This document shows, one piece after another, positions 23,539-45,671 of a stretch of 64,000 nt of DNA. The stretch is from NCBI GenBank assembly GCA_900471815.1, contig UICE01000012.1, positions 30,349 to 94,348 of the forward strand, read 5' to 3'. The DNA is from Hyphomicrobiales bacterium (GTDB lineage: Bacteria > Pseudomonadota > Alphaproteobacteria > Rhizobiales > Rhizobiaceae). Below the pieces are notes generated by a model. The model was not told where the DNA came from. It did no database searches and was given only the letters and a program-made list of their open reading frames with translations. A program made the translations under genes and the position numbers. Each line of letters starts with the position of its first letter. Positions within the stretch are counted from its first letter, which is position 1.

Positions 23539-24345
23539 ATGTCCGACAGCGCAGGCGATGCCGGCCTCAAGAACAAGGTCGCGATCGTAACCGGATCGAC
23601 AAGCGGCATTGGTATGGGCATAGCACGCCGGTTGGCAGGGCAAGGGGTGAACGTCGTGATCAATGGCCTCGGTGATGCCTCTGTTATCGAGGCGGAACGG
23701 AATGCCATTGAAACCGAATTTTCCGTGCGGTGTCTGTACTCGCCAGCGAACATGCTTTCTGGTCCCGAAACTTCCGGCATGGTACAGCTTGCAGTCGATG
23801 AGCTCGGTTCATGCGATATTCTGATCAACAATGCCGGCATTCAGCATGTGGCACCGATCGACGAGTTTCCGGACGAGAAGTGGGAAGCGATCCTGCAGAT
23901 AAATCTTGGCGCTGCCTTCCATGCCATCAAGGCGGTCATTCCCCCGATGAAGGCACGCGGATGGGGCCGGATCATCAACATTGCGTCTGCACATGCCCTG
24001 GTCGCATCCCCGTACAAATCTGCCTACGTGGCCGCCAAGCACGGTATTGCCGGTCTGACGAAGACCGCCGCCCTGGAGGTTGCAGCAAACCGGATAACGG
24101 TGAATGCGATCTGCCCCGGATATGTCTGGACGCCCTTGGTCGAAGCGCAGATCCCAGGCACCATGGCTGCCCGCGGCATGACCAAGGAACAAGTGATCCA
24201 TGACGTGCTTCTGGAAGCGCAACCCACGAAGGAATTCGTAACCATCGATCAAGTAGCGGCGCTTGCAGCGTTCCTGTGTTCGCACGACACCGCTTCAATC
24301 ACTGGTGCGATCATTCCCATTGATGGTGGATGGACCGCACATTGA
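23539..24345 (+). CDS. bdhA: D-3-hydroxybutyrate dehydrogenase
   Basis: A 268-residue NAD-dependent short-chain dehydrogenase interconverting 3-hydroxybutyrate and acetoacetate in polyhydroxybutyrate turnover. It shows the cofactor loop [16 protein letters not shown], the catalytic serine ([11 protein letters not shown]), the YVAAK tyrosine/lysine pair and the BdhA-type tail ([16 protein letters not shown]). The GCAGGAGG site lies just before the ATG. Acetoacetate decarboxylase follows immediately, so the operon handles ketone bodies. Confidence 0.92.
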
Positions 24346-24380
24346 ACAATGCTTTCGTAGCTATTCAAGGGACAGACCAT

Positions 24381-25124
24381 ATGAAGACCGACGATGTTCG
24401 CCGCGCCTATGCGATGCCTCTGACCAACCCGGCCTATCCGCCCGGACCTTATCGGTTCACGGACAGAGAATATGTCATCATCACCTATCGAACCGATATT
24501 GACGCCTTGCGGCAGGTTGTTCCCGAACCGCTTGAAATTGTCGAGCCGATCGTGAAATATGAATTCATCAAGATGCCGGATTCAACGGGTTTTGGCGATT
24601 ACGTCGAGTCCGGTCAGGTTATCCCGGTGCGATTTGATGGGAAGGACGGTGTCTATGTCCACGCCATGTACCTTGATGATGATGCCCCGATCGCCGGTGG
24701 ACGTGAAATCTGGGGCTTCCCCAAAAAGCTTGCCTATCCCAAGCTTGTGCATGAAGGCGAAGTGATCGTCGGGACCCTTCATTACGGTTCGGTGCTTTGC
24801 GCAACGGCGACCATGGGCTACAAACATCATGCAGTCGATAAAGCCGCAATTGCCAGGTCTCTCAAGCAGCCTAATTTTCTCGTCAAAATCATACCGCATG
24901 TCGACGCCACCCCGCGCATATGCGAACTGGTTCAGTATCACCTTGAAGACATTACCGTGAAAGGTGCCTGGTCAGGCCCAGCCGAACTCGAGCTTCATCG
25001 CCATGTCATTGCCGATGTCGCCCGGCTACCGGTTCTGGAAGTCATCGGTGCGGTGCATTTCCTTGCCGATCTCACCTTGGGCATGGGCAAAGTCGTTCAT
25101 GATTATTTGAGCGATCCGGTTTGA
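24381..25124 (+). CDS. adc: Acetoacetate decarboxylase
   Basis: A 247-residue enzyme converting acetoacetate to acetone and CO2. The Schiff-base lysine lies in [14 protein letters not shown] (about residue 115), with the glutamate/arginine neighbourhood and the GRE turn preserved. ATG 24381 follows AAGGGAC; an upstream ATG at 24330 would overlap bdhA and lacks a site. It sits between bdhA and a patatin-like lipase, so the unit would degrade a polymer-derived C4 pool. Confidence 0.92.
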
Positions 25125-25153
25125 ATCGCCCGGTCACAAAGGAACGTATCAAT

Positions 25154-26317
25154 ATGGACCAGTTAGCCGGCACTCCCACGAACAAGGCTGTCAGTATCAA
25201 GGAGGTGCTTGATCCCTATCAGTCCGTCGCGCTTGTCTTTCAGGGCGGCGGCGCACTCGGTGCCTATCAAGCCGGGGTTTTTCAGGCATTAAGCGAGGCA
25301 GGCGTGGCCGCCAACTGGTTATCAGGCGTTTCGATCGGAGCGATAAACGCGGCGATCATTGCGGGCAATAAACCGGGAGACCAGGTGGATCGGCTAAGGA
25401 ATTTCTGGGAGACGGTATCCAGCAGAAAGGTCTGGCATTTCACACCGGAGGGCGACTACTTTCGCAAGCTGCGCAATCAGGCCAGCGCTATGATGACCAT
25501 GACTTCGGGGCTACCGGGCTTTTTTGCACCGCGGGAAATGAACCCCTGGCAACAGCTTGCGGGGGCATCCGGCGCGACCAGTTTCTATGATACCAGCGAA
25601 CTGGAAACCACGCTGAACCGGCTGATCGATTGGAAGGTTCTGAACGACAGACAGCAACGGCTGAGCGTCGGTGCCGTAAATGTGAGGACAGGCAACTTCC
25701 GCTATTTCGACAGTGAAATCGAAACTATCTCAGCCCAACATATTATGGCGTCTGGCGCACTTCCCCCGGCTTTTCCAGCGATCCATATCGAAAACGAATA
25801 TTACTGGGATGGCGGCATTGTATCGAACACACCACTGCAATATTTGCTGGAACAGGAAGATGTTCATGATACGCTTGTCTTCCAGGTCGATCTGTTCAGT
25901 GCACGCGGGACTCTGCCCCGCGAAATGCCGGATGTGCTCGCCCGACACAAGGATATTATGTATTCGAGCCGGACACGCAACAACACGGATACATTCCGCC
26001 GGCTGCATAATCTCAAACTGAAGCTGCATCAGGCCTTGCTGCGCGTGCCAGCCGAAGCGCTCACCGCTGAGGATAGGGAATTTCTTTCCTCCATGCAGGA
26101 TGTGCCACAGATCAACATTGTTCACCTCATCTACCAGCAAAAACTTTATGAAGGCCATGCCAAGGATTACGAATTCTCCGGAACTTCGATGCGCGAACAT
26201 TGGGATTCTGGCTATGAAGATACGCGAAAGACCCTGCGCCACCGTACCTGGCTGGAAAAGCCGCCAGAGTCTGTCGGCATGACGGTGCACGATGTTCACC
26301 GCGATGACCCGAGTTAA
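25154..26317 (+). CDS. Patatin-like phospholipase/esterase with DUF3734 tail
   Basis: A 387-residue serine hydrolase. The oxyanion loop FQGGGALGAYQAG and nucleophile elbow GVSIGA appear within the first 80 residues, and the catalytic aspartate in WDGGIVSNTP near residue 210. The C-terminal third matches DUF3734. ATG 25154 follows AAAGGAA; a TTG at 25121 overlapping the adc stop is an alternative. Patatin proteins with this tail occur next to bdhA in rhizobia. Involvement in PHB granule or lipid mobilisation is inferred from that neighbourhood. Confidence 0.88.
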   Translation: MDQLAGTPTNKAVSIKEVLDPYQSVALVFQGGGALGAYQAGVFQALSEAGVAANWLSGVSIGAINAAIIAGNKPGDQVDRLRNFWETVSSRKVWHFTPEGDYFRKLRNQASAMMTMTSGLPGFFAPREMNPWQQLAGASGATSFYDTSELETTLNRLIDWKVLNDRQQRLSVGAVNVRTGNFRYFDSEIETISAQHIMASGALPPAFPAIHIENEYYWDGGIVSNTPLQYLLEQEDVHDTLVFQVDLFSARGTLPREMPDVLARHKDIMYSSRTRNNTDTFRRLHNLKLKLHQALLRVPAEALTAEDREFLSSMQDVPQINIVHLIYQQKLYEGHAKDYEFSGTSMREHWDSGYEDTRKTLRHRTWLEKPPESVGMTVHDVHRDDPS

Positions 26318-26966: not shown

Positions 26967-27665
26967 TCATGACAGACGGATCATAAGCCCCCTCAATACC
27001 GTCTGTGTGATCGTCTTTGCAGCCATGTCATAGTCCACTGCCGTTAGTTCGTCGACATTAAGCGCATCGCAGGCCAAAGCCTCGAACTCGGCATAGAATT
27101 GCGTCACTGACCACAACAGAATGAACAGGTGGCGGGCATCGATTTTCTCGATCTTTCCCGCCGCCGCCCATGCATCGATTACTCTTGCCTTCTCGGACGT
27201 AACAGTTCGCATGTGGTCGCGGGCCGCGACCGAAAGGTGTTCAGCTCCCTGCAATATCTCATTTGCAAAAAGGCGCGTCTCCGCGGCATTCTCCCTGGCA
27301 TTGTCCAGCTTCGCACGCACATAGGCCTCGATCGCATCGCCGGGTTCACGATCGGCGGAAATATGCCGAAACGCATCATCCCAACTGTGGATCAGGTGAT
27401 CTATGGCAGCGGTGTAGATTTCCTCTTTGGACGAGAAATAATAATAGACATTGCCCTTAGGCAGACCCGAAGCCTTGGCGATTTCAACGATGCGGGCTCC
27501 ATCAAGACCTTTGCGCGAGAATATCTCGACAGCTGCAGTCAAGATCTTGAGCACATTCCGCGCTCTGATCGGCTCATCCGACGCGGCTTGCGCGGCAAGT
27601 CCTTTTTCAGCGGCGGCATGAGTTGCGCTAAGTTCTTCTGCCATTGGTATCCCGTTATTTTTCAT
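26967..27665 (-). CDS. TetR-family regulator, RutR-like
   Basis: A 232-residue repressor with an unusually long N-terminal tail (about 40 residues). The TetR helix-turn-helix follows (ILTAAVEIFSRKGLDGARIVEIAKASGLPKGNVYYYFSSKEE, here split only by domain order). The rest matches the RutR-type C-terminal domain that senses pyrimidines in enterobacteria. It is divergent from a nucleoside-import/degradation operon, and two RutR-like operators lie in the shared promoter region. The probable role is repression of that operon until a nucleobase or nucleoside binds. The exact inducer is unknown. Confidence 0.87.
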   Translation of the reverse strand: MKNNGIPMAEELSATHAAAEKGLAAQAASDEPIRARNVLKILTAAVEIFSRKGLDGARIVEIAKASGLPKGNVYYYFSSKEEIYTAAIDHLIHSWDDAFRHISADREPGDAIEAYVRAKLDNARENAAETRLFANEILQGAEHLSVAARDHMRTVTSEKARVIDAWAAAGKIEKIDARHLFILLWSVTQFYAEFEALACDALNVDELTAVDYDMAAKTITQTVLRGLMIRLS

Positions 27666-27772
27666 AAGGTTTTGTCCGAATAATCGCCCACGTCAACACT
27701 CCTTTTCCCTTAGGAGGTAGGTCAGTCTTATTGAATGGGCCGCAAAGAATCGTGACGCCAATAAAAAAGAAG

Positions 27773-27788
27773 TTGACAATTTGGTCAA
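27773..27788. promoter_or_regulatory. RutR-like operator, site 1
   Basis: TTGACAATTTGGTCAA differs at one position from the RutR consensus TTGACCANNTGGTCAA. It lies in the divergent promoter between the TetR gene and the nucleoside operon, 32 bp (centre to centre, three helical turns) from site 2. Confidence 0.7.
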
Positions 27789-27804
27789 GTTTTTTCATGA
27801 AAAG

Positions 27805-27820
27805 CTGACAAAACGGTCAG
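27805..27820. promoter_or_regulatory. RutR-like operator, site 2
   Basis: CTGACAAAACGGTCAG has perfect outer arms CTGAC/GTCAG and the same 16-bp layout as site 1. Its distance to the ATG at 27867 is 46 bp. Two phased sites imply cooperative binding. Confidence 0.65.
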
Positions 27821-27866
27821 GTTCTTGAAAGAGCCTGCCAGAGTCGACCAGTCAGGGGACGTGGAA

Positions 27867-28718
27867 ATGCCAATATCGTTAAGGGCCGCCATGGGGGAAT
27901 TTCTGTCAGATTGGTCCGCTGACCTGACTGCACCATGGCGTTCGCTGATCGGGCATGCGGGGCCTGACATCGAAGCGATAGCGCCCGAACTCGAGCTGGA
28001 GGTCTGGGAGCCTATTTTCCCCGTTCGTCTCGAAAAGCATTTTCCCGGAATGCCTGCCGGCGCGCACTGCCTGAGGGCATTTGAAGGAATTAAACCCGAC
28101 GACGTTCATTGTGTCATTCTGGGTCAAGACCCCTACCCCGAACCCGGGTTTGCTACCGGACGTGCCTTTGAGGCCGGGAATCTTGCGGGTTGGAACGAAC
28201 TTGACAAGATGTTTTCCAAGAGCATTCGGGCCTATATGCAGATGATCGTGGCAGCGCGAACAGGCGATCTATCTTACGCCCGCAGCTTCGAAGACTGGCC
28301 GAAGACACTTGCCGCCATGGAAAGCGGTACAGTCGACATCGAACATCCATCCGCTATAGCCGACCGCTGGGTCTCAAATGGCGTTCTGCTTCTGAATGCC
28401 TCGCTCACGCTCACCCGTTTCAAAGTGAATATGGATGAGCATCAGACGAAGGGCCATCTGCGACTCTGGCATCCGCTGATTGTGGAAACCCTGCGTGTCC
28501 TCGCCTCCAAGGGCAAGCCGTTGGTGTTCCTCGGTTTTGGTGGCGCCGCTGCAGACGCACTGGCAGACGCTGGCATTGACGAGTCTGCCAATGGAAATCT
28601 GCGCTGCATCTTGCGGGAACATCCAGCCTATGCCGATGCCATCCTTTCTAGACCCAATCCATTCATTCTTTGCAACGACTCTTTGAAGGAGATGGGCGCT
28701 CGTCCCATCGCGTGGTAA
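27867..28718 (+). CDS. Uracil-DNA-glycosylase-fold protein in nucleoside operon
   Basis: A 283-residue member of the uracil-DNA glycosylase fold. The water-activating motif is GQDPYP (UNG has GQDPYH), a LLLNASLTL strand is present, and the second active-site motif reads REHPAYAD where UNG has HPSPLS. The DNA-intercalating loop is therefore altered. It is first in an operon under RutR-like control with a nucleoside transporter, which is odd for DNA repair. A role in cleaving the glycosidic bond of free nucleosides is possible but unproven. ATG 27867 was preferred; TTG 27825 is an alternative start. Confidence 0.78.
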   Translation: MPISLRAAMGEFLSDWSADLTAPWRSLIGHAGPDIEAIAPELELEVWEPIFPVRLEKHFPGMPAGAHCLRAFEGIKPDDVHCVILGQDPYPEPGFATGRAFEAGNLAGWNELDKMFSKSIRAYMQMIVAARTGDLSYARSFEDWPKTLAAMESGTVDIEHPSAIADRWVSNGVLLLNASLTLTRFKVNMDEHQTKGHLRLWHPLIVETLRVLASKGKPLVFLGFGGAAADALADAGIDESANGNLRCILREHPAYADAILSRPNPFILCNDSLKEMGARPIAW

Positions 28719-28720
28719 CC

Positions 28721-30352
28721 ATGGCGTCAACGAAAACATTCGATTTCATAATCATAGGCGCCGGTTCGGCAGGTTGCGTCCTGGCAAACCGCCTGTCCGC
28801 CGATCCTTCCAACAAGGTACTTTTACTTGAAGCGGGCGGGCGGGATCTCAACCCATTGTTTCGGCTGCCCATGCTTATGGGCAAGCTATTTCATTCGGGC
28901 ATCTATAACTGGCACTATCACACCGAGCCGGAGCGGCATCTGAACGGACGCTCTCTCTATTGGCCTCGTGGCAAAGTACTTGGCGGAACATCCACGATCA
29001 ATGGCATGATCTATGTTCGCGGCAACCGTCACGACTATGATCGCTGGGCGCAGATTGGCGCAGCGGGATGGTCATACGATGAAGTACTGCCGGCATTCCT
29101 CCGCTCCGAGAACCACGTGCAACGCAATGGCGCCTACCACAATTCCGAAGGCGAACTGACGGTCTGCCGGGCACGCGGCTGGAACAGCCTGCTGGATGTT
29201 TTCAACGAGGCAGGCGGACAGGCAGGATATCCGCACAATGACGATTTCAACGGTGGCGAACAGGAAGGTTTCGGTCGCTACGACTTCACCATAGCCAAGG
29301 GCAAACGCTGCTCGGCAGCTTATGCCTTTCTACGCCCTGCCAGGAAACGTTCGAACCTGACGATCATTTCACGCGCTCATGCGAGGCGTATCCTCATTGA
29401 AAATGGCCGGGCTATCGGCGTCGAGTTCAGCCGAAAAGGCAGTATTTCGCAAGTCTATGCAGACCGTGAAGTGATCCTGTCTGCTGGTGTCGTCAATTCA
29501 CCGCAAATTCTCATGCTGTCGGGAATCGGCGCGGCGGACGAACTTGCGCAGCATAATATTCCGGTCGTCCAGGACCTCCCCGGTGTAGGCAAAAACCTTC
29601 AGGATCATGTGGATTGCGTCATGTCCTATGAGTGCCGGGAGCCGGTCACTCTCTATTCGGACCTGCGCGCCGACAAGCTTACCTGGTCGGTGATCCAGGG
29701 TATGCTGTTCGGGAAAGGAATCGCAACGACTTTTCCCTATGAAGCCGGAGCCTTCGTCAAATCGCGCCAAGACCTGGTTGCACCCGATATCCAGCTTCAC
29801 TTCATGCCGGCACTTGAAAAAACCGCGAACCTGCATTTTCCAAATCCGTTCAAGAAAGAGCGTGTAGAGGCCAATCACGGCTTTTCGTTGCGCGTCGGTC
29901 CGGTCAATCCAGAAAGCCGCGGCGAGATCAGGCTGCGCTCGGCCGATCCGATGGACAGGCCATGCATCACAGCGAACTATCTGCAAACAGAATTTGACAT
30001 TCGAACGATGATCAATGCGATCCGCATGACGCGGGACATTATCAAGCAGACAGCTTTCGATAAATATCGCGGCAAGGAACTTGCTCCTGGTCCCGCCGTC
30101 GAAAGCGACGCGGAAATGATCAAGTGGCTGCGTGCCAATGCCATGACGACGTTCCATCCTGTCGGCACCTGCAAGATGGGCAATGACCAGATGGCCGTCG
30201 TCGACTCTCGATTGAGGGTTCACGGCGTAAAGAGCCTGCGCGTCGCGGACGCTTCGATCATGCCAATCATTTCAAGCGGCAACACGAATGCCCCGGCGAT
30301 CATGATCGGGGAGCGGGCTGCTGAATTCATTCTTAAGGAGCCATCCATATGA
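28721..30352 (+). CDS. GMC-family FAD oxidoreductase
   Basis: A 543-residue flavoenzyme oxidising an alcohol group. The FAD-binding GxGxxG (FIIIGAGSAGCVLANRLS) is at the N-terminus, the GMC signatures RGKVLGGTSTINGMIYVRGN and SAGVVNSPQILMLSGIG follow, and the active-site histidines lie in TTFHPVGTCKMG and the NTNAP region. It starts 2 bp after the glycosylase stop. The resemblance to choline dehydrogenase is general; given the operon, a nucleoside hydroxymethyl or a sugar hydroxyl is the likelier substrate. Confidence 0.9.
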   Translation: MASTKTFDFIIIGAGSAGCVLANRLSADPSNKVLLLEAGGRDLNPLFRLPMLMGKLFHSGIYNWHYHTEPERHLNGRSLYWPRGKVLGGTSTINGMIYVRGNRHDYDRWAQIGAAGWSYDEVLPAFLRSENHVQRNGAYHNSEGELTVCRARGWNSLLDVFNEAGGQAGYPHNDDFNGGEQEGFGRYDFTIAKGKRCSAAYAFLRPARKRSNLTIISRAHARRILIENGRAIGVEFSRKGSISQVYADREVILSAGVVNSPQILMLSGIGAADELAQHNIPVVQDLPGVGKNLQDHVDCVMSYECREPVTLYSDLRADKLTWSVIQGMLFGKGIATTFPYEAGAFVKSRQDLVAPDIQLHFMPALEKTANLHFPNPFKKERVEANHGFSLRVGPVNPESRGEIRLRSADPMDRPCITANYLQTEFDIRTMINAIRMTRDIIKQTAFDKYRGKELAPGPAVESDAEMIKWLRANAMTTFHPVGTCKMGNDQMAVVDSRLRVHGVKSLRVADASIMPIISSGNTNAPAIMIGERAAEFILKEPSI

Positions 30353-30669
30353 TCGTCGAACATCGCACCTATACGTTTCGCCCTGGATCGGTCGACGGCT
30401 GGCTGAAAAAATACGAGACCGAGGGCCTGCCGATCCAGAAGCGGCACCTCAACACATTTCTCGGTCTCTATGTCAGCGAGATCGGCCACCTGCACACAAC
30501 GGTTCTGATGTGGCGCTATGACAGTCTTGCCGACCGGGAGACAAGACGGGCAGCCATGTATGCTGACCCGGATTGGCAGGCATTCATCTCCGGCGTCTGG
30601 TCTCTCGACGCCATTCAGAGTCAGGACGTTATGATTATGAATCCGGCACCATTTTCTCCCGACGCCTGA
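30349..30669 (+). CDS. NIPSNAP-family protein
   Basis: A 106-residue single NIPSNAP domain of the dimeric alpha/beta-barrel superfamily, opening IVEHRTYTFRPGSVDGWLKKYE and including LNTFLGLYVSEIGHLHTTVLMWRYDSLADRE. Such proteins are often oxygenase- or isomerase-like partners in catabolic operons, but no reaction is established. The start overlaps the GMC stop codon (ATGA), so expression is coupled. Confidence 0.85.
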   Translation: MIVEHRTYTFRPGSVDGWLKKYETEGLPIQKRHLNTFLGLYVSEIGHLHTTVLMWRYDSLADRETRRAAMYADPDWQAFISGVWSLDAIQSQDVMIMNPAPFSPDA

Positions 30670-30724
30670 GACGGGCGGTGTCTGAAGTGAAAAGGGCCCA
30701 AAATCCTGGACCCCGATGACGACC

Positions 30725-30745
30725 GGGCGGCAAACGAAGCCGCCC
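30725..30745 (+). other. GC-rich hairpin before the binding-protein gene
   Basis: GGGCGGC and GCCGCCC form a 7-bp GC stem with loop AAACGAA, 49 bp upstream of the BMP start. No T-run follows. Positioned between the enzyme and transporter blocks, it may reduce read-through or stabilise the binding-protein transcript. Confidence 0.5.
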
Positions 30746-30793
30746 CAATAAGAAGTTGCTGATATACAACCTCCAGAGCAAGGAAATGGGAAC

Positions 30794-31864
30794 ATGACCA
30801 ACAAGACTTCAAATGAAATGAATATGTTGCATAGGCCGGTCGGTCGCCGCACACTCCTCAAGGCCTCGGCCGGACTGGCCGCCATGACAATCGCAGGTGG
30901 CCGACTGACAACGGATGCGCGCGCTGCGGGCGGCCTTGTCGCGCTGGTTCACACGCAGGCAGCGGGTGATGCCGGTCCCGTGGACTCGATGATCGCCAGG
31001 CTCACACAACTCTCCAAAGAGCTGGGGTTCCAATATCGCGCCGTATACGCTCAAGACCCGGCGACCTATGAGACCATTTTCCGTACTCTCGGCGATGCTG
31101 GCGCGGCAGTGATCGTTTCGACCTTCAACGAGGTAGCAGAACCCTTCAAAGCGCTCGCCCCTTCCTACCCCGATACTAAGTGGATTCAACTTTTCGCTGA
31201 TCCCTTCGAGCCAGCAATCCCCAATGTCGTGACGGTGTCCTATGATTACTATCTCGGCTGTTATCTCTCCGGCATTTTTGCTGCGCGCGTGAGCAAGTCG
31301 GGCAAGCTTGGTTTCATCGGGGGCGTGTCCATTCCGCCAATCAATGCCGACTATAATGCATTCAAGGCAGGTGCCTTGTCCGTGCGTCCGGATGCATCGG
31401 TCAAAATCGCGTTTGCAGGATCTTTTCAAGACCCGGCAAAAGGTCAGGAGATCGCGACACAGATGTATTCAAGTGGCATTGACTTCATCCAGACTGATGC
31501 TGCAGCAACAGATTTCGGTATCATTGCCGCAGCAAAAGAGACGGAAGGCCGTCTGGTGAGCGTCCTTGATCCCGCTCAATTCCCGCAAGGTCCAAAATCC
31601 GTAATTTCAATCGTCGGCCTCGACTTCGGAACCTCGCTCTATAACGAGGTAAAGAAGGCATTTGGCAGCGAATTTGCTGGCGGAACCCATGAGCATACCG
31701 GTTTGGGAACAGGCGTTATCGACTTCATCCCGTCGCCACTCTTCGCCGAACAGGGGCCAGCTGACATTGTTGCCAGGGCAAAGGAAGTGGAGCCAGAGAT
31801 TGCAGCGGCACGAGCAGCAATTCTTAACGGATCATTGAAGGTTCCGTTCAATACAAAGCTGTGA
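30794..31864 (+). CDS. BMP-family nucleoside-binding lipoprotein-like protein
   Basis: A 356-residue periplasmic binding protein of the BMP/PnrA family, which bind purine nucleosides. It has a twin-arginine-like signal (GRRTLLKASAGLAAMTIAGG) ending near ARA. The mature part has the family's STFNEVAEPFKALAPSYPDT and KSGKLGFIGGVSIPPINADY segments. It is followed by a double-ATPase and two permease genes, which together make a complete importer. The translation site is AAGGAAATGGGAAC before the ATG. Confidence 0.9.
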   Translation: MTNKTSNEMNMLHRPVGRRTLLKASAGLAAMTIAGGRLTTDARAAGGLVALVHTQAAGDAGPVDSMIARLTQLSKELGFQYRAVYAQDPATYETIFRTLGDAGAAVIVSTFNEVAEPFKALAPSYPDTKWIQLFADPFEPAIPNVVTVSYDYYLGCYLSGIFAARVSKSGKLGFIGGVSIPPINADYNAFKAGALSVRPDASVKIAFAGSFQDPAKGQEIATQMYSSGIDFIQTDAAATDFGIIAAAKETEGRLVSVLDPAQFPQGPKSVISIVGLDFGTSLYNEVKKAFGSEFAGGTHEHTGLGTGVIDFIPSPLFAEQGPADIVARAKEVEPEIAAARAAILNGSLKVPFNTKL

Positions 31865-31886
31865 ACTTCGACTGGATCAAGCCGCG

Positions 31887-33446
31887 ATGACACAACTTAG
31901 CCCCCCAATATTTGAATGCCGCGACGTGACCGTTCGCTACGGTCATGTCCTCGCGCTCTCTAATGTCGGAGCCGTTTTTGAACGTGGCATGATCCACGCG
32001 GTGGTCGGCCAGAATGGTGCGGGCAAGACGACGTTTGCCCGCGTCCTGGCCGGTCTGGTTCGCCCTGCATCGGGTGAGATCAAGATCGACGGTCGCCCGC
32101 TTGCAGGCGGCAACGTCAGGGATGCCCGGCGTTCGGGTGTTGAACTCGTCCACCAGAGCTTCGCGCTACCCCCCTCTTTCACGGTCGCCGAAGCAATGCA
32201 GTTTGGCGCGAAAGGCGGAAGATTCTTTACAAAGAAAAAACTTGAAAAGCGGTGGCAGCTCCACCTCGACGCGCTCGACGTGAAGGTGAGTACGAGGCAG
32301 CGCATTCGCGACCTGCCGGTCGAGACCCAGCAAGGGGTTGAAATCGCAAGAGCTCTTGTTTCGGACGCAAAGCTGCTCATTCTGGATGAACCCACCGCGG
32401 TTCTTTCTCCTGAAGGTGCCGAGAAGCTTTTCGAACGAGTGAGGCGTCTCAAGGAGCGCGGCGTGACCGTGATCCTTATCTTGCACAAAATTCGAGAAGT
32501 TCTGGCAATTGCAGATACCGTCACGGTTCTGCGTGGCGGTAAGCTCGTGGATGGGCCGCTTGCCAGCAATGGGATTGATGCGAACCGGCTGGCAGAGCTT
32601 ATTATCGGGCCAGCTGCTGCCCGCAATCTCAATCCGGAAGCCAAAGCCGCTTTGACCGGAACAACGCTGCTCCCGCATACCGAAAGGCAAGCGGACATCA
32701 CTGCGGCGCCGGTCCTCAAGATGCGTAACGTTTCCACGCGACCCGACCCTGAAGGTCCTGCGCTCGACGGGATCACCCTCGACATCCGTCCCGGAGAAAT
32801 TATCGGTGTTGCGGGCATTGAGGGAAATGGACAAAGGACACTGGTGCGCGCAATTTCGGCATTGGCGAATATCGTCAACGGTGAGATTTCCATCGACAGC
32901 ACAAATGTGACCGACACCCCGCTCGCGGCAAGACGGGCGATCGGGCTGCGCGTCATTCCCTTTGAGCGGAATGTTGAAGGACTTAGCATGACCAGTTCCC
33001 TTTGGGAAAATTGGTCCGCACGAAGTCTTCTTCAGACACCGCTTTTATCCACTATCAGCCCCTCTGCTATTCGCAAGCAATGCGATAGCGCCCTGAAGCA
33101 ATGGGATGTCCGTTATTCCGATGTGAGACAGCGCGCTGGTTCCCTTTCGGGAGGAAACGCTCAGAAGGTAATACTGTCGCGCGAGATGGATGAAGATGCC
33201 TGTCTTATTCTTGCAGCGCAGCCCACCCGTGGTCTGGATATCGGAGCGACCTCTTTTGTATGGGACTCGATGCGCAATGCGCGAGCACGCGGTTGTGGTT
33301 TATTGTTCATCTCGTCGGATCTAGACGAAATCTTCGATATTTCGGACCGTATAATTGTCATGCTGTCCGGGCGCATCGTCGCCGAATTCCGCCCCCCCTA
33401 TGATCTTGCCGCAGTCGGCGCAGCCATGACAGGAGTGCTGAGATGA
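31887..33446 (+). CDS. Nucleoside/sugar-type ABC transporter ATPase (two domains)
   Basis: A 519-residue ATPase with two tandem nucleotide-binding domains, as in ribose- and nucleoside-type importers. Domain 1 has GQNGAGKTTFAR, an unusual signature IRDLPVETQQGVEIARAL and LLILDEPTAVLSP. Domain 2 has GIEGNGQRTLVR, a degenerate Walker A, and GSLSGGNAQKVILSREM. In the first domain's D-loop region the sequence ends in AVLSP, also usual. It is preceded by the binding protein and overlaps the first permease (ATGA). Confidence 0.92.
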   Translation: MTQLSPPIFECRDVTVRYGHVLALSNVGAVFERGMIHAVVGQNGAGKTTFARVLAGLVRPASGEIKIDGRPLAGGNVRDARRSGVELVHQSFALPPSFTVAEAMQFGAKGGRFFTKKKLEKRWQLHLDALDVKVSTRQRIRDLPVETQQGVEIARALVSDAKLLILDEPTAVLSPEGAEKLFERVRRLKERGVTVILILHKIREVLAIADTVTVLRGGKLVDGPLASNGIDANRLAELIIGPAAARNLNPEAKAALTGTTLLPHTERQADITAAPVLKMRNVSTRPDPEGPALDGITLDIRPGEIIGVAGIEGNGQRTLVRAISALANIVNGEISIDSTNVTDTPLAARRAIGLRVIPFERNVEGLSMTSSLWENWSARSLLQTPLLSTISPSAIRKQCDSALKQWDVRYSDVRQRAGSLSGGNAQKVILSREMDEDACLILAAQPTRGLDIGATSFVWDSMRNARARGCGLLFISSDLDEIFDISDRIIVMLSGRIVAEFRPPYDLAAVGAAMTGVLR

Positions 33447-34489
33447 TCGATCGGCTCGTAACCGTTTTCCGTGCGCTGATCTTCATCATGCTGGGACTTA
33501 CGCTTTGCGGCATCATCTTTCAGGCCGCTGGCTATTCTGCTCCCTTGATGTTCCAGTCTATCGCGGATGGCGCCTTCCTCAGACCAGGCGCACTGCAACA
33601 GATACTTCGCTGGGGGCTCCCGCTGTTCATCACCGCTGCGGGTGTAGCCGTCTCCTTTCGAGCGGGCTATTTCAATATCGGTGCTCAAGGCCAGTTCTAC
33701 ATGGGAGCCATCGCAGCCGCTTTCATGGCGGATTGGCTCAATGGCGCATCGGCACCTGTCCTTGTCACGGCCTGCTTCCTTGCGGGCATGACAGGCGGTG
33801 CACTCTGGGCACTTTGGCCAGGACTTCTGCGGCTGAAATCAGGTGCTGACGAAGTGATAACTACCCTAATGGGAAATTTTATCGCAGGTCTTGTCCTGCT
33901 CTATGTCACCGCCGGGCCTCTTAAAGATCCATCAGGAACCGGACAGCAGGCATCAAGCCGTCCACTTGCGGGTGCCTACCGGATCAGCGACTCGCTCGGG
34001 CTGTCTCCAACGATCATCATCATCGCCGTTATTGTCGGCCTTGCGATGTGGTTTCTGGTTAATCGGACCGCCTTCGGGATAGTTTCCGGCCTTGCTGGTC
34101 GAAATCCGACAATGGTCGAGTGGCAAGGCGCGCGGACATGGCGCATAGGACTTGCAAGTTTTCTCCTCAGCGGTGCGCTTGCCGGTCTTGCAGGAACCAT
34201 CGAATTCATGGGGCCAAATGGACGGCTGACCGGTGGTTTCCTACCCGGTCACGGCTTCACCGCGATTCTGATCGCTCTCGTTGCCAACTTCTCGGTTGTC
34301 GGCACGGCCTTCGTGGCACTTTTCTTTGGCGGGCTTGCGTCTGCCGCTCTCTACCTGCCCATCATGGCTGGCCTACCCTCTTCGGCAATCGACATTATCA
34401 ACGCAGCCATCGCTCTTTTCATCACCGCAAAATCCAGTACCGTCGACCGGATAGCGAAAATTGGAGGACGGATATGGAAGACTTCGTAA
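33443..34489 (+). CDS. ABC transporter permease, nucleoside type (1)
   Basis: A 348-residue inner-membrane permease of the BPD_transp_2 family, with about 8-10 hydrophobic segments. Features include GLPLFITAAGVAVSFRAGYF-like membrane entry, NIGAQGQFYMG and MGNFIAGLVL. Its start overlaps the ATPase stop and its end overlaps the second permease, so a heterodimeric channel is inferred. Confidence 0.9.
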   Translation: MIDRLVTVFRALIFIMLGLTLCGIIFQAAGYSAPLMFQSIADGAFLRPGALQQILRWGLPLFITAAGVAVSFRAGYFNIGAQGQFYMGAIAAAFMADWLNGASAPVLVTACFLAGMTGGALWALWPGLLRLKSGADEVITTLMGNFIAGLVLLYVTAGPLKDPSGTGQQASSRPLAGAYRISDSLGLSPTIIIIAVIVGLAMWFLVNRTAFGIVSGLAGRNPTMVEWQGARTWRIGLASFLLSGALAGLAGTIEFMGPNGRLTGGFLPGHGFTAILIALVANFSVVGTAFVALFFGGLASAALYLPIMAGLPSSAIDIINAAIALFITAKSSTVDRIAKIGGRIWKTS

Positions 34490-35367
34490 TCGCCATTCTG
34501 CGCTCAGGCACTCCTTTGATTTACGTAACACTTGCCGGTGTGATTGCTCAACGAACAGGTGTCTGGCATCTGGGCCTTGAAGGTCTGATGATTGCAGGTG
34601 CCTGCACAACCATTCTTGGCATTGTGCTCACACAATCGATCTGGCTTGCCCTTCTGGGCGCAATTATCGTCTGCGTGCTTGGATCAATCCTGTTCTGGTT
34701 TGTAGTGGAAAAGCTCAAGGCCAACCAGATTATCGCGGGGTTGGGGCTGACCGGTTTGGGGCTGGGTGGCACTGCACTCGCCGTGCAATCCATATTCGGC
34801 ACGCAGGCGGCTGTAAGCGCACCATTTGGCCTGCCCCGCATCGGTTCCGCTTTTGGATCATTCGGCTCCTTGTCTATCCTCGTCTTGATCATGCCTGCAA
34901 TCGTCTTTGCAATGTGGGTTATATTGCGCCGAACTCGTTTCGGCCTGCGCTTGGCTGCCGCTGGCGAGCACCCTTTCGCTGCGCGCAGTGTCGGCGTCAA
35001 CCCGGCTGTCATGCGCCTCATTGCATTGATGGTTGGCGGCGTGCTTTGTGCGCTGGCGGGTGCTGAACTTGCTGCGGGAAGCCTTCAGATATTTGCCCAA
35101 AACATGACGGCCGGTCGTGGCTTCATGGGGTTTGCTGCGGTCATATTCGGGGCCGGACATCCCATCGGCGCGACTCTGGCGGCCATGTTCTTTGCCATTG
35201 TTGGCGCACTCGGCATCAGGGCTCAGCTGGCTTTCGGCGATCGTGTTCCCCACGACCTGCTGCTCGCTTTGCCCTATTTGGCCACTGTTCTCGGCATCTG
35301 GCTCAGCACGCACCTGCGCGGAGGTACCAAAGCTGCCAGCGGCTTCGGTGAGCTACGCGATCAATAG
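34474..35367 (+). CDS. ABC transporter permease, nucleoside type (2)
   Basis: A 297-residue second permease of the same family, starting MEDFVIAILRSGTPLIYVTL, with the family's WHLGLEGLMIAGA and AGEHPFAARSVGVNP motifs. The ATG lies within the first permease gene, preceded by TTGGAGG. A much longer frame from 34120 is an artefact in the first permease. It completes the BMP-type importer for the operon. Confidence 0.9.
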   Translation: MEDFVIAILRSGTPLIYVTLAGVIAQRTGVWHLGLEGLMIAGACTTILGIVLTQSIWLALLGAIIVCVLGSILFWFVVEKLKANQIIAGLGLTGLGLGGTALAVQSIFGTQAAVSAPFGLPRIGSAFGSFGSLSILVLIMPAIVFAMWVILRRTRFGLRLAAAGEHPFAARSVGVNPAVMRLIALMVGGVLCALAGAELAAGSLQIFAQNMTAGRGFMGFAAVIFGAGHPIGATLAAMFFAIVGALGIRAQLAFGDRVPHDLLLALPYLATVLGIWLSTHLRGGTKAASGFGELRDQ

Positions 35368-35430
35368 ACACCAGCCTGGCGTCGCTCCACTTCGGAACCG
35401 GTGCGACGGCACAACGAACAGGACACGCCC

Positions 35431-36942
35431 ATGCTCCAGACGCTGATCAAGAATGCCACCCTGTTGACGATGTGTCCTCAGAACGGAACCAAGCCGTTCG
35501 AAGGCGACATTCTGATCGAGGACGGGCGCATTGCTGCTATCGGCCAAAATCTCGCCGCCCAACCGAGTGCCACCCTTATCGACGGCAAAAGCCGTCTCAT
35601 CATGCCGGGCCTCATCAATGCGCATACCCATTCAAGCGAAACGTTTTTTCGCGGGCGATATGAAGGCATGCCATTGGAAATCTGGTTGCTCTACGCCTAC
35701 CCATTATTGATGGGCCCCGTTATTAATGACAGGCTGCTTTATCTGCGCAGCCTTCTTCTTGCCATGGACTCGTTGCGCAATGGCGTCACAACGATTTGCG
35801 ACGATTTTTTTGATCCGCCGGTACATGATCTCTCACGGCTATCAACGGTATTCAGGGCCTATGACGATGCGGGTATTCGCGCCAATGTGTCCAGCGCCGC
35901 TATGAACGTACACACATTGGATGCCTTGCCCTTCGCCCGCGAGATCATGCCGCGCCATCTGCAGGAAAAGCTTGATTTTGGCCCGCCCATGTCGGCCGAG
36001 GCCTATATCGATTATTGCCGTTCCGCATTTTCCTCATTGCATGGCAAGGCCGGTCGGCTCAACTTCATGATCGCACCTTCGGCGCCACAACGCTGTACCC
36101 CGGATTTGCTGCAGGCTTGCCATGCGCTGGCTGTGGAAATGGGCGTTCCGCTGCATACACATATCTTGGAAACCAAGACACAGGCCGTAACCGGACATCA
36201 AATTTACGGCAAGAGCCTGATCGGCTATATGCGTGATCTCGGCGTCCTGTCGCGCAACACGACCATCGCCCATTCTGTTTGGGTGAGTGAGAGCGACATG
36301 GAAATGATGGGCGATGCCGGATGCTCAGTTGCCCATAATGCCATTTCCAACCAAAAACTGGGGGCGGGGATTGCTCCCATTCGCCACCTGATGAATGCGG
36401 GCGTAACCATTGGTCTTGGAACCGATGGCGTTTCGTCGAATGACACAGCTCGCGTCTTCGACGTCATGCGGGTGGCCGGACTGATCCACAGCGTCTCCGG
36501 CCCGGATCACGATCAGTGGATTCGAGCTGACGAGATACTCACCATGGCGACGATCAGCGGAGCACGCAGTGCCATGCTGGAAAATGTGACTGGTTCACTC
36601 GAAATTGGCAAAGCCGCCGATCTGTTGATCCTTGACCTCACAACTCTCAGCTTCACGCCTCTCAACGACATCGCCAAGCATCTCGTCTACGTAGAAAATG
36701 GCTCTTCCATTGAAACGGTCATGGTCGCAGGACAGATTGTTTTCAATGCAGGCAAGTTGCAACTGATTGATGAGGCTGCGATACTGGCCGAGATCCGTGA
36801 ACTTCTCCCAGCGCATCTCGCCGCACATACTGAACTCGAAACACGCAACGCAGTCTTCCACACCACTATGGCCGAAATTCATCGACGCGCTACGTCTACG
36901 GATATCGGCATGGACCGCTATGCAGGAGATACTGGGGCGTGA
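35431..36942 (+). CDS. Amidohydrolase/deaminase (SsnA/TrzN/8-oxoguanine-deaminase-like)
   Basis: A 503-residue metal-dependent hydrolase acting on amidine or amino groups of heterocycles, for instance purine or triazine deaminases. Metal ligands are seen in NAHTHSSETFF, the histidines of PLHTHILET and TIAHSVW, and the aspartate of GTDGVSSND. The preceding Cys-Ser-Val-Ala-His-Asn-Ala-Ile stretch is a family hallmark. ATG 35431 follows AGGACA. As the last gene of the nucleoside operon it probably deaminates the imported base or a derivative. The substrate is unassigned. Confidence 0.88.
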   Translation: MLQTLIKNATLLTMCPQNGTKPFEGDILIEDGRIAAIGQNLAAQPSATLIDGKSRLIMPGLINAHTHSSETFFRGRYEGMPLEIWLLYAYPLLMGPVINDRLLYLRSLLLAMDSLRNGVTTICDDFFDPPVHDLSRLSTVFRAYDDAGIRANVSSAAMNVHTLDALPFAREIMPRHLQEKLDFGPPMSAEAYIDYCRSAFSSLHGKAGRLNFMIAPSAPQRCTPDLLQACHALAVEMGVPLHTHILETKTQAVTGHQIYGKSLIGYMRDLGVLSRNTTIAHSVWVSESDMEMMGDAGCSVAHNAISNQKLGAGIAPIRHLMNAGVTIGLGTDGVSSNDTARVFDVMRVAGLIHSVSGPDHDQWIRADEILTMATISGARSAMLENVTGSLEIGKAADLLILDLTTLSFTPLNDIAKHLVYVENGSSIETVMVAGQIVFNAGKLQLIDEAAILAEIRELLPAHLAAHTELETRNAVFHTTMAEIHRRATSTDIGMDRYAGDTGA

Positions 36943-36964
36943 AGGACCGTCGCGATTGGTTAAT

Positions 36965-37078
36965 ACGCGATGCCGGCCCTGTCCGCAAATTGACGTTTGT
37001 CTGTGTGACCGCCGACGCAGCCAGTGCCGAAGCGGCAGTCAAAAGGCCGATAAAAATGAACAGTGATTTCTTGAGCAT
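36965..37078 (-). pseudogene. Truncated bacterial SH3-domain protein
   Basis: MLKKSLFIFIGLLTAASALA is a clear signal peptide, cleaved near ALAASA, followed by the start of an SH3b domain (TQTNVNLRTGPAS). The domain then breaks off, and the rest of the frame runs antisense to the amidohydrolase 3' end. The ATG at 37078 has a GGAGA site. The start of a real gene thus survives, but no functional domain remains. It marks a recombination point downstream of the nucleoside operon. Confidence 0.7.
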
Positions 37079-37093
37079 GATTGTCTCCAGCAT

Positions 37094-37572
37094 CTCGGTT
37101 TAACGATGTCTCACCGTGATACGGCTGGCTGGCTACAGTCCTACGCGGACATCAGCATGGCCGGGCCGGGACGGGACGAGGCGGTCGACCTCACCTAATG
37201 TGGTAGGATTTACGTCGCTTTTTTGTGTGCGGTTAACATTAGCCGCCTTGAATGGAATTGAACCGCAGACCACTCAATGCAGTTCTCTTAAGTGCGGTTC
37301 CAGACGAGGCACTATGCGATTTTCGGAGCACATGCCGGGAAAATCACCTGTGCTGCCACCAGCTCCGCGCCGCGGAACCGGCCGGCGCTTCAGATTTGGG
37401 TTCCAGAATCGAGAAGAGCGCCGAGGATGGGGCGATTCCGGTGAAGGGGAGGATCGTACATTAGGATAAACCAGGCCTTCGTGATTTGGTTCAATCCGGT
37501 CCTTCCTCATATTGCCGTCAGCAGCAGAGGTGGGTAGGAACAGTCATTCGCGCACGGTCTGTTGAAGGCCGC
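37094..37572. other. Gap with a partial dispersed repeat
   Basis: About 480 bp between the SH3 relic and the LysR gene. Positions 37243-37271 match 63874-63902 at 27 of 29 bases (CCGCCTTGAAT...GAACCGCAGACC). Long frames on the plus strand here have no domain or ribosome-binding site. It appears to be repeat-associated intergenic DNA. Confidence 0.5.
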
Positions 37573-38439
37573 CTACGAGCCCAAGGCCATCGAGTGGAGT
37601 CGAAGCACAAGGTGATTGATAGCCAGTGCGGCGCCTGGGCTGAGCGTTTTGGACCGGTGAAGACGTATCTCGGCGCCAGGCAGCGGCGGCAGGCATTGAC
37701 CGGGATCAACGTTGCGCAGGCCGTGCGAAAGCATGCCACCCTTGACGACGGTCACCGCCAAGCCCTGCCTAACAATAGCCTCCACGGCTGCAAGACTCGA
37801 GCTGACATAAGCCAACCGCCATAGTCGACCTGCCTCACTGAGCGCCTCAAGGGCCCAGGCGCGAAACAGGCAATCTGGATTCGACAAGGCCATCGGCAGA
37901 GGATTGATATCCTCGACGGCGTGGTCGGCCGCTGCTACCCAAACCGCCTTTTCCCGACAGATCAACTCTCCTTCGGTTGCGCCTTCTGGATGCATGGCAA
38001 TGACCGCATCGAAGGACGATCCGAGCCTTTTCAGGAATCGGGCAGTCAGACCGATCTCCATCTCGATTTGAACGAGAGGAAATCGCTCGGCCATGTCGGC
38101 CAACAGGCGCGGCAGGACCTTGGTGCCATAGTCCTCCATGACACCGATGCGAATGCGTCCGATAACCTTCTGATTGGAAAGGCGCGCGATCGCTTGCTCG
38201 TTGAGGGTGAGGATACGACGCGCATCGATCAGAAAATCCTCGCCGGCTGCCGTGATTTCGACGCGCCCTGTCGATCGGCGAAACAGCGCGACACCAAGGC
38301 GCTCCTCAAGGCGGCGTACCTGCAAACTCACCGCCGCCTGTGTTCGGTTGAGCCGCTCGGCGGAGCGCGTGAACGACAGGTGCTCAGCGACGGCGACGAA
38401 AGCCCGCAAGAGTTCCGGATCGAGGGTCGAAGTGCTCAT
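37573..38439 (-). CDS. LysR family transcriptional regulator
   Basis: A 288-residue LysR protein beginning MSTSTLDPELLRAFVAVAEH. The HTH (SFTRSAERLNRTQAAVSLQV) is near residues 20-45 and the effector domain from about residue 90. It is divergent from a DMT exporter gene, with about 90 bp of AT-rich promoter sequence between them, so it most likely activates that exporter. Effector unknown. Confidence 0.9.
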   Translation of the reverse strand: MSTSTLDPELLRAFVAVAEHLSFTRSAERLNRTQAAVSLQVRRLEERLGVALFRRSTGRVEITAAGEDFLIDARRILTLNEQAIARLSNQKVIGRIRIGVMEDYGTKVLPRLLADMAERFPLVQIEMEIGLTARFLKRLGSSFDAVIAMHPEGATEGELICREKAVWVAAADHAVEDINPLPMALSNPDCLFRAWALEALSEAGRLWRLAYVSSSLAAVEAIVRQGLAVTVVKGGMLSHGLRNVDPGQCLPPLPGAEIRLHRSKTLSPGAALAINHLVLRLHSMALGS

Positions 38440-43456: not shown

Positions 43457-43618
43457 TCTGTCCTCCTGCGGTAAGGTGATATAGTCAACTGGAGTTGTTG
43501 CATCTCGCCCAATTTTGGGACATTCCGAGGAAGCTGATGGGCCAGCCGATACTAAATTCGCAAGGCTGAGGACTCCTGACATCAGAACTCCCCATGCCGG
43601 GGTGATGTTCCGGCAAAG

Positions 43619-44068
43619 TTATGATTTAACAGCCTTATGCCCTGTCATTTCGGTAATGAGGATACGAAAATAGACGGGTTCCAGAGGCCGGGGATGGTCT
43701 CTGATTACCGTTTTCACATAGGCTGGCTCCCACCACTCGGCTCGTTTGCTGAGAAGGGCATGAGCCTCGTTGCGCGCTGCGATATGGTCGGGATGATCCG
43801 TGAGCTCTTCGTACTGACCAAAGGCCACGACGGTTTGCCAATTATTTGTGCCACTAATCTCATCAAACTCAAGGCAGACATGAGGATTTGCACGCATCCA
43901 TTCAATCTTGCGCCCGTAAGTCGTGAAAGAATAGAAATAACCGGGCCGGGCGACAAAATTCATGGGGATGATATATGGCTGGCCATCGCGCACACAGGCA
44001 AGCCGCCCAACCTTGGCATGTTCCACCAGATGCATGATTTCAAACTGGTTCATTGCGTTGATTTGCAT
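43619..44068 (-). CDS. Pyridoxamine-5'-phosphate-oxidase-like flavin protein
   Basis: A 149-residue split-barrel protein of the PNPOx/flavin-nucleotide-binding family, opening with HAKVGRLACVRDGQPYIIPM and containing SFTTYGRKIEWMRANPHVCLEFDEI, which matches the FMN-binding region of the family. These small proteins often bind FMN, F420 or heme. It lies 35 bp downstream of a universal stress protein gene, upstream of phosphoketolase, in the presumed FixK operon, suggesting redox or hypoxia function. Confidence 0.85.
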   Translation of the reverse strand: MQINAMNQFEIMHLVEHAKVGRLACVRDGQPYIIPMNFVARPGYFYSFTTYGRKIEWMRANPHVCLEFDEISGTNNWQTVVAFGQYEELTDHPDHIAARNEAHALLSKRAEWWEPAYVKTVIRDHPRPLEPVYFRILITEMTGHKAVKS

Positions 44069-44103
44069 CTTAAAGGCTCCGTATCGCTATCCGACGTTCC
44101 CGC

Positions 44104-44940: not shown

Positions 44941-45035
44941 TGCTCTCTCCATAGGACGACGGTGCGATTGAGCAATTGATAGAGGCCAAGCGGGACACGA
45001 GCATTGCGCTGGATCAAATTGGGAAAAGTTCCGGT

Positions 45036-45667: not shown

Positions 45668-45671
45668 GATT

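What the first reader, a model, noticed from the sequence alone, without database searches (positions are those of the whole stretch)
26967..36942. RutR-like regulator controlling an undescribed nucleoside uptake/oxidation/deamination operon
Eight genes (UNG-fold glycosylase homologue, GMC oxidase, NIPSNAP protein, BMP binding protein, double ATPase, two permeases, amidohydrolase) are co-oriented and largely overlapping. A TetR protein with RutR-type C-terminal sequence is divergent, and two RutR-like 16-bp operators lie between. The set is not the known Rut pathway. A DNA-glycosylase fold used in catabolism would be new; alternatively it protects DNA from damaged bases imported by the transporter.
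Basis: partly seen in the sequence, partly recalled or inferred. Interest (0 to 1): 0.85.

Follow-up and report, generated by a model that had tools for sequence, protein, structure and literature searches.

The report
DNA-repair fold in nucleoside-feeding operon
Rhizobia and some of their relatives carry a conserved gene set that likely imports and digests pyrimidine nucleosides, and it includes a protein related to a DNA-repair enzyme that is predicted to act here on free nucleosides instead of DNA.

Summary
In detail: a divergent RutR-like TetR gene, two RutR-type operators (27773-27788, 27805-27820) and eight co-oriented genes lie where stated. Relatives sharpen it. In 24 of 24 loci read that hold the UNG-fold gene, it is followed by the GMC oxidase and NIPSNAP genes, near a RutR-like gene and a BMP-type ABC importer. 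An operator pair 32-34 bp apart is present in 25 of 27 regions tested, against none in shuffles. Sister operons add thymidine phosphorylase, RihA/UriH-like nucleoside hydrolase or a dCMP-type deaminase, so pyrimidine nucleosides are the likely substrates; all five UNG-less relatives carry such a phosphorylase or hydrolase. The UNG-fold protein keeps the uracil pocket and catalytic Asp, Asn and His (24 of 24), but loops that bind DNA in Ung are changed and a new Arg is invariant. I read it as a small-molecule glycosidase working with the GMC oxidase (SapB shows that a GMC enzyme can oxidise a nucleoside 5'-OH). Function is untested. A DNA-repair role is not excluded: 20 of 21 genomes examined have no match over the ung cut-off. 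I found no report of this operon in the searches made. New variant of a known kind.

The parts
26967..27665 (-). RutR-like TetR-family regulator, divergent; not RutR itself
   Evidence: Pfam TetR_C_3 122.6 bits; RutR equivalog TIGR03613 147.7 of 368 bits; best solved relatives are RutR; 34% identical over 155 aa to the genome's own RutR
27773..27788 (.). operator 1, TTGACAATTTGGTCAA
   Evidence: a pair 32-34 bp apart in 25 of 27 regions tested
27805..27820 (.). operator 2, CTGACAAAACGGTCAG
27867..28718 (+). UNG-fold protein (283 aa), predicted glycosidase of a free pyrimidine nucleoside
28721..30352 (+). GMC flavin oxidoreductase, choline-dehydrogenase-like, predicted alcohol oxidase of the sugar
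   Evidence: GMC_oxred_N and _C; PRK02106 684.8 bits over its 605 cut-off; follows the UNG gene in 24 of 24 loci
30349..30669 (+). NIPSNAP protein, role unknown, third member of the module
   Evidence: Pfam NIPSNAP 98 bits; present in 24 of 24 loci
30794..31864 (+). BMP/PnrA-type substrate-binding protein
   Evidence: Pfam Bmp 136.5 bits
31887..33446 (+). tandem ABC ATPase
   Evidence: Pfam ABC_tran, two stretches
33443..34489 (+). ABC permease A
   Evidence: Pfam BPD_transp_2
34486..35367 (+). ABC permease B
   Evidence: Pfam BPD_transp_2
35401..36942 (+). COG0402-type amidohydrolase, predicted deaminase (ATG at 35431 also possible)
   Evidence: Amidohydro_1 182.6 bits; nearest solved: MTA/SAH deaminase, atrazine chlorohydrolase

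Best explanation
This conserved gene set, which would be repressed by the RutR-like protein encoded beside it, likely imports pyrimidine nucleosides through its BMP-type ABC transporter and digests them, with a UNG-fold protein predicted to cut the base off a free nucleoside that the neighbouring GMC flavoenzyme would first oxidise on its sugar. Shown: gene content and order, the operator pair, the strict UNG-GMC-NIPSNAP linkage in the loci read, the conserved uracil pocket and the altered DNA-binding loops. Inferred: (1) the TetR protein represses from two tandem operators and is released by a pyrimidine ligand; (2) the importer brings in pyrimidine nucleosides; (3) GMC oxidises the 5'-OH; (4) the UNG-fold enzyme hydrolyses the N-glycosidic bond of this product, which ordinary phosphorylases or hydrolases would not take; (5) the amidohydrolase (a dCMP-type deaminase in two sister operons) removes an amino group; (6) the released uracil or thymine goes to the reductive Pre/dihydropyrimidinase pathway encoded elsewhere in the genome. 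Steps 1 and 2 are likely; 3 to 6 are proposals.
For: Linkage: UNG, GMC and NIPSNAP all present and in this order in 24 of 24 UNG-bearing loci read, and all three absent in 4 of 4 loci found with the importer but without the UNG gene. Pairwise divergence of UNG tracks that of GMC (r 0.92), ATPase (0.91) and TetR (0.91) over 21 loci, so it travels with the operon. Substrate class: sister operons add thymidine phosphorylase (L033: PRK05820 518.8 bits, cut-off 269), a nucleoside hydrolase whose best models are the pyrimidine-specific RihA and UriH (below their cut-offs) and a dCMP-type deaminase. UNG-less relatives: 5 of 5 carry a classical phosphorylase or hydrolase, against 6 of 22 UNG-bearing ones (Fisher p 0.006; loci related, L038 dropped, S. 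meliloti counted once). Operators: 25 of 27. Active site: D88, Y90, F101, N177, H252 in 24 of 24; canonical Leu80, Ala189 and Ser193 (numbering of the G430 Ung) become Arg99, Arg250, Ala254 in 24 of 24. Downstream route: RutR, PreA, dihydropyrimidinase and a hydantoinase/carbamoylase-family amidase, with a RutR-type site, in the same genome. GMC precedent: SapB oxidises pseudouridine and uridine to 5'-aldehydes (PMC10127198, passages read).
Against: No activity is shown for any protein. Six UNG-bearing operons also hold a classical nucleosidase, so UNG is not simply its substitute. The genome already has a separate cluster with a PNP/UDP-type phosphorylase, a pyrimidine phosphorylase and UPRT and a nucleoside hydrolase. 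The amidohydrolase is closest to purine and triazine enzymes, not pyrimidine ones, and is missing in six of the UNG-bearing loci (L033, L036, L037, L039, L040, L041). By NCBIfam the GMC protein falls in a subfamily named choline dehydrogenase. Arg99 also occurs in distant UNG-like proteins outside such operons, and the insertion is partly shared with a solved Ung, 5x3g. 20 of 21 genomes examined have no match over the ung cut-off, so the protein could still serve DNA. In L041 the operators lie before BMP, with the UNG-GMC-NIPSNAP genes on the far side of the TetR gene. The catalytic loop 89-98 is poorly modelled. Net charge does not separate the protein from canonical Ung.
Confidence: 0.5

Rival explanations
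1. Reverse order: the UNG-fold protein hydrolyses the imported (deoxy)nucleoside directly, and the GMC enzyme then oxidises the freed ribose or deoxyribose; NIPSNAP acts on that product.
For: Same linkage data. 16 of 22 UNG-bearing operons show no other nucleosidase in the stretch read. Hydrolysis, unlike phosphorolysis, leaves free sugar, which needs a further enzyme; oxidative (deoxy)ribose routes exist (PMC6365646, passages read).
Against: The deoxyribose dehydrogenase in that paper is an iorAB-like molybdenum enzyme, and the terms GMC, choline dehydrogenase and NIPSNAP do not occur in its main text. This order does not explain operons with both UNG and a classical hydrolase, where the extra hydrolase would be redundant.
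Confidence: 0.2
2. The UNG-fold protein is a DNA-repair glycosylase kept in the operon to guard the genome against uracil or modified bases misincorporated from imported nucleosides.
For: Ung family-1 catalytic motif and fold. 20 of 21 genomes examined, including 16 of 17 that bear the operon UNG gene, have no match over the ung cut-off.
Against: The window's genome has three other UDG-superfamily genes over the Pfam cut-off. The Ser of HPSPLS is Ala throughout, the Ser of the GS loop is kept in 1 of 27 sequences, and new arginines are invariant. A guard would be expected to follow the importer; four importer loci lack UNG, GMC and NIPSNAP together.
Confidence: 0.2
3. The operon feeds on another heterocycle with a CH2OH group (vitamin B6, thiamine pyrimidine or a plant nucleobase conjugate), and the RutR-like regulator is only a homologue.
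For: The best named models for the binding protein, the ATPase and both permeases are putative B6 transporters; solved GMC relatives include pyridoxine 4-oxidase; a solved BMP relative is called atrazine periplasmic binding protein (6pi5).
Against: All these transporter scores lie far below cut-off (binding protein 42.6 of 400 bits). Sister operons carry thymidine phosphorylase, nucleoside hydrolase and dCMP-type deaminase.
Confidence: 0.08

Closest known systems
Rut operon and RutR (E. coli)
   Same: TetR_C_3 regulator, palindromic TTGAC-N6-GTCAA operators (motif recalled), pyrimidine theme
   Different: No RutA-G enzymes among the genes; regulator far below the RutR equivalog cut-off; the genome holds a separate, closer RutR beside a reductive pathway
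Family-1 uracil-DNA glycosylase (Ung)
   Same: Fold; GQDPY, LLLN and HP active-site motifs; uracil-pocket residues
   Different: HPSPLS becomes HPA..; Ser of the GS loop kept in 1 of 27; about 34 extra residues between Phe101 and Pro145; 70.6 of 185.75 bits on the ung equivalog; sits in a catabolic operon
5x3g, Ung of Nitratifractor salsuginis
   Same: Of the five best solved Ung sequences whose alignments were printed, the only one that the family profile matches in one stretch across the inserted region (its Y81G mutant is the other one-stretch row)
   Different: C-terminal part not matched; its genomic context and activity were not examined
BMP/Nup-type nucleoside ABC importers with nucleoside phosphorylases and UPRT (a cluster of this kind is also in this genome)
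   Same: Importer type and substrate class
   Different: Oxidase plus UNG-fold module instead of, or besides, phosphorolysis
SapB, GMC oxidase of pseudouridimycin biosynthesis (PMC10127198)
   Same: GMC family; oxidation of a pyrimidine-type nucleoside 5'-OH, the reaction proposed here
   Different: Biosynthetic, Streptomyces; no sequence comparison with SapB was made

Membership tests
RutR | NCBIfam equivalog cut-offs (TIGR03613 368 bits, PRK15008 230 bits) | tested here: not met
   147.7 and 123.4 bits; the genome's other RutR scores 256.8 and 230.9, so it meets only the second
RutR | RutR-type palindromic operator (motif recalled) | tested here: met
   two sites
RutR | released by uracil or thymine | not testable with these tools
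   ligand assay needed
Ung family 1 | catalytic Asp (GQDPY), Asn (LLLN), His (HP) and uracil-pocket Tyr/Phe (roles recalled) | tested here: met
   24 of 24 loci
Ung family 1 | equivalog TIGR00628 cut-off 185.75 bits | tested here: not met
   70.6 bits
Ung family 1 | Ser of the HPSPLS loop (phosphate contact, role recalled) | tested here: not met
   Ala254 in 24 of 24
Ung family 1 | intercalating Leu of that loop (role recalled) | tested here: inconclusive
   the gap can be placed two ways; a Leu follows at 260 in 26 of 27 and 22 of 24 loci
Ung family 1 | Ung fold | tested here: met
Ung family 1 | removal of uracil from DNA | not testable with these tools
   enzyme assay needed
choline dehydrogenase | subfamily model PRK02106 cut-off 605 bits | tested here: met
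   684.8 bits
choline dehydrogenase BetA | equivalog TIGR01810 cut-off 732.1 bits | tested here: not met
   604.5 bits
putative B6 ABC transporter | NCBIfam equivalogs NF047927-NF047930 | tested here: not met
   binding protein 42.6 of 400, ATPase 378 of 670, permeases 128.6 of 400 and 91.3 of 465
BMP/PnrA binding-protein family | Pfam Bmp cut-off | tested here: met
   136.5 of 24.1 bits
named COG0402 hydrolases (N-ethylammeline chlorohydrolase; 5'-deoxyadenosine, 8-oxoguanine, guanine, MTA/SAH deaminases) | NCBIfam equivalog cut-offs | tested here: not met
   294.6 of 609, 259.5 of 522, 218.2 of 532, 130.4 of 375.4, 180.3 of 779
Rut uracil pathway | Rut enzymes in the operon | tested here: not met
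   none among the operon genes

The most novel reading that the evidence does not exclude
A DNA-repair fold has been recruited into nutrition: a Ung-derived enzyme that cleaves free, 5'-oxidised pyrimidine nucleosides, paired with a GMC nucleoside oxidase, in a previously undescribed oxidative route of pyrimidine nucleoside catabolism found in plant-associated Alphaproteobacteria, including symbiotic plasmids of Sinorhizobium meliloti.
Probability: 0.35. Interest if true: 0.88.

Novelty: new variant of a known kind. Interest (0 to 1): 0.64.

Why it matters
If true, it would be a UDG-superfamily enzyme working on free metabolites, and a way to take nucleosides apart by oxidation before base release. 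It would re-label a group of proteins now annotated 'uracil-DNA glycosylase' (the 120 listed homologues at 58-98% identity; 900 in all at E <= 1e-3, of which the unlisted may include ordinary Ung). It would also give a concrete, testable nucleoside-feeding trait on S. meliloti symbiotic plasmids: strain Rm41 has the genes, while the S. meliloti 1021 pSymA record is held but is not among the 37 matching plasmid records.

Tried and rejected
Considered and set aside: (1) UNG as the plain substitute for a nucleoside phosphorylase or hydrolase: the association exists but six operons have both. (2) Net charge as a sign of lost DNA binding: the 27 aligned proteins average pI 5.3, but the one canonical alphaproteobacterial Ung at hand also has pI 5.85, so it is not informative. 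(3) Arg99 as an operon-specific mark: it also occurs in Variovorax and Alloyangia proteins outside such operons; of the positions compared, Arg250 is the one absent from those two and from canonical Ung. (4) Loss of the intercalating Leu: ambiguous alignment. (5) Free-sugar oxidation by a known deoxyribose dehydrogenase: different enzyme type. (6) Sigma-70 promoter and terminator scans found no promoter at 27600-27950 or 36900-37600; the only terminator-like hit is operator 2 itself. (7) Literature, judged by title and start of abstract of what was listed: searches (6 papers; 20 of 23 listed; 3; 10 of 3,295 listed; 4) showed no account of this operon; two searches found no paper; others (7; 15 of 39 listed; 2) gave nothing on it beyond the papers cited. 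(8) Of the 35 YTGACN6GTCAR sites in the genome (control pattern 13), regions around three off-window sites were opened: C8:430740 lies beside pyrimidine genes, the other two fall inside reading frames of unrelated genes. (9) Class- and phylum-wide searches added little: 2 of 385 and 2 of 398 genomes with the UNG gene, and 2 of 318 in the class with the BMP gene, the window's own genome counted each time. (10) The stretch before the transporter genes on pTiAF3.44 (L072), where no TetR gene is annotated, shows no operator pair; it is not among the 27 regions. The pair criterion was set.
Full report
What is there. Nine open frames match the finding: a TetR gene on the minus strand (26967-27665) and, on the plus strand, a UNG-fold protein, GMC oxidoreductase, NIPSNAP, BMP binding protein, tandem ATPase, two permeases and an amidohydrolase, ending at 36942 (families). 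Three of seven junctions overlap by 4 bp. Between the divergent genes lie TTGACAATTTGGTCAA (27773-27788) and CTGACAAAACGGTCAG (27805-27820), the only two matches of YTGACN6GTCAR in 64 kb; none of 100 shuffles had two. The genus is probably Phyllobacterium: relative G016, called same genus, has a contig of the same length as the P. myrsinacearum record that holds the operon, with the gene at the same place.

Conservation. The UNG gene was found in 3 of 59 relatives, 15 of 397 genomes of the order, 2 of 385 of the class and 2 of 398 of the phylum, the window's genome counted each time, in 6 loci of genome contigs and in 37 of 72,556 plasmid records. Of these 37, 34 are Sinorhizobium or Ensifer at 55-59% identity; the other three are 33-35% identical and lie in other surroundings. 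I read 24 loci of the operon type: the window, L004-L009, L027-L041, and S. meliloti Rm41 and BL225C (L100, L101). UNG, GMC and NIPSNAP are present in 24 of 24, in that order, with a RutR-like gene and the importer. L038 ends inside BMP, L007 cuts the TetR gene, and in L041 the TetR gene lies between NIPSNAP and BMP. Pairwise identities of UNG over 21 loci correlate with GMC 0.92, ATPase 0.91, TetR 0.91, BMP 0.81 and NIPSNAP 0.65.

Operators. A pair of sites (8 or more of 10 matches to TTGAC-N6-GTCAA) 32-34 bp apart is found in 25 of 27 regions before the operon, including three of the four from UNG-less loci, and in none of 200 shuffles of each; L034 and L064 have one site. The criterion was set. 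The loci are related, so these are not independent events, but identity of the UNG protein falls to 47-48% (L039, L040). In L041 the pair stands before BMP, not before UNG. The pTiAF3.44 stretch looked at has no pair.

Substrate class. Searching with the BMP protein found 18 of 394 order genomes, the own one counted. Four of these loci have the importer and no UNG gene (L061-L064); they also lack GMC and NIPSNAP, and three of the four keep the RutR-like TetR gene. A fifth UNG-less relative sits on Ti plasmid pTiAF3.44 with P450, ferredoxin and nucleoside hydrolase genes. The place downstream of the permeases varies between operons: a VOC protein, thymidine/pyrimidine phosphorylase, nucleoside hydrolase, amidohydrolase, SDR, or in L039 and L040 a dCMP-type deaminase. 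One example of each was named by NCBIfam: thymidine phosphorylase PRK05820 518.8 bits over 269 (TIGR02643 521.7, under its 570.7); hydrolase best RihA 276.8 of 433 and UriH 239.2 of 450, below cut-off; deaminase best ComEB 66.2 of 219.45, below cut-off. Together they point to pyrimidine nucleosides. All 5 UNG-less loci carry a phosphorylase or hydrolase; 6 of 22 UNG-bearing ones do (L029, L033, L034, L036, L037 and S. meliloti, counted once; L038 dropped), Fisher p 0.006 with related loci. Absence was judged in the stretches fetched, which reach 0.4 kb or more past the last operon gene. So the UNG-GMC-NIPSNAP module can stand without a classical nucleosidase in the operon but also coexists with one.

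Fit with the rest of the genome. One RutR-type site, C8:430740, lies between a closer RutR gene (230.9 bits against a PRK15008 cut-off of 230) and a row of omega-aminotransferase, hydantoinase/carbamoylase-family amidase and dihydropyrimidinase genes; a PreA gene (747 bits) with its partner lies on the other side of that RutR gene. That is a complete-looking reductive pyrimidine route that could take uracil or thymine released by the operon. The two RutR-like proteins are 34% identical over 155 residues. A separate cluster holds two permeases, a PNP/UDP-type phosphorylase, pyrimidine phosphorylase and UPRT, and a nucleoside hydrolase gene lies at C8:418906, so the window operon is an additional system, likely for substrates or conditions these do not serve.

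Mechanism. The tightest link is UNG with GMC and NIPSNAP, not with the importer or the deaminase. I therefore propose that GMC prepares the substrate of the UNG-fold enzyme: oxidation of the nucleoside 5'-OH, as SapB does to pseudouridine (KM 34 uM) and uridine (KM 901 uM) with H2O2 release (PMC10127198, passages), then hydrolysis by the UNG-fold enzyme. A 5'-carboxylate could be held by Arg250 where Ung holds DNA phosphate; this is speculation. The reverse order (hydrolysis first, sugar oxidation second) and a DNA-guard role remain open. The amidohydrolase is called a deaminase from its family and from the deaminase that takes its place in two operons of one bacterial family; its nearest solved relatives act on purines and triazines, and six UNG-bearing loci lack it.

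Literature. The RutR regulon study (PMC5343134, passages) and GapMind (PMC9007349, passages) were read only in passages, which do not describe this operon. Term searches showed no paper on it in what they listed. A listing has a paper titled 'Root-secreted nucleosides: signaling chemoattractants of rhizosphere bacteria' (PMC11120975, title and start of abstract only), which would make such an operon useful.

Verdict. The gene set and its operator pair are real and conserved; pyrimidine nucleosides are the likely food; the catabolic use of a UNG fold is the best reading and is directly testable, but unproven.

Noticed in passing
window 39882-54288: Acetate kinase, phosphoketolase, a PAS histidine kinase with response regulator and a Crp-type regulator (families) lie with genes that read as universal-stress proteins and a P-type ATPase (not scanned); it looks like a low-oxygen island.
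   Followed up: partly
window 23539-26317: An SDR gene, acetoacetate decarboxylase (Pfam ADC 306 bits) and a patatin-like gene, co-oriented, end about 650 bp before the TetR gene; no decarboxylase or patatin match was seen in the relatives, so they are not part of the conserved set.
   Followed up: partly
L072 (pTiAF3.44) 1669-10059: A relative of the importer (BMP 67% identical) on a Ti plasmid of Agrobacterium larrymoorei, with ferredoxin, P450, FAD oxidoreductase and nucleoside hydrolase genes; a P450 gene also lies between two BMP genes in L036. Perhaps uptake of a modified nucleoside.
   Followed up: partly
L068 9992-10855, L069 9980-10819, L070 about 10001-10860: Distant UNG-like proteins (33-35% identical): beside an amidohydrolase in Variovorax, beside exonuclease-domain and hypothetical genes in Alloyangia, and frame-broken near GMC and amidohydrolase genes in Azospirillum. 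The first two carry the TGR motif. A wider UNG subfamily of unknown role.
   Followed up: partly
L071 (S. meliloti AK57 pSymA): GMC, BMP, ATPase and permease genes are annotated or matched as split pieces, whereas Rm41 and BL225C match over 97-100% of each; either sequencing errors or decay.
   Followed up: no
genomes: No match over the canonical ung cut-off in 20 of 21 alphaproteobacterial genomes examined.
   Followed up: partly
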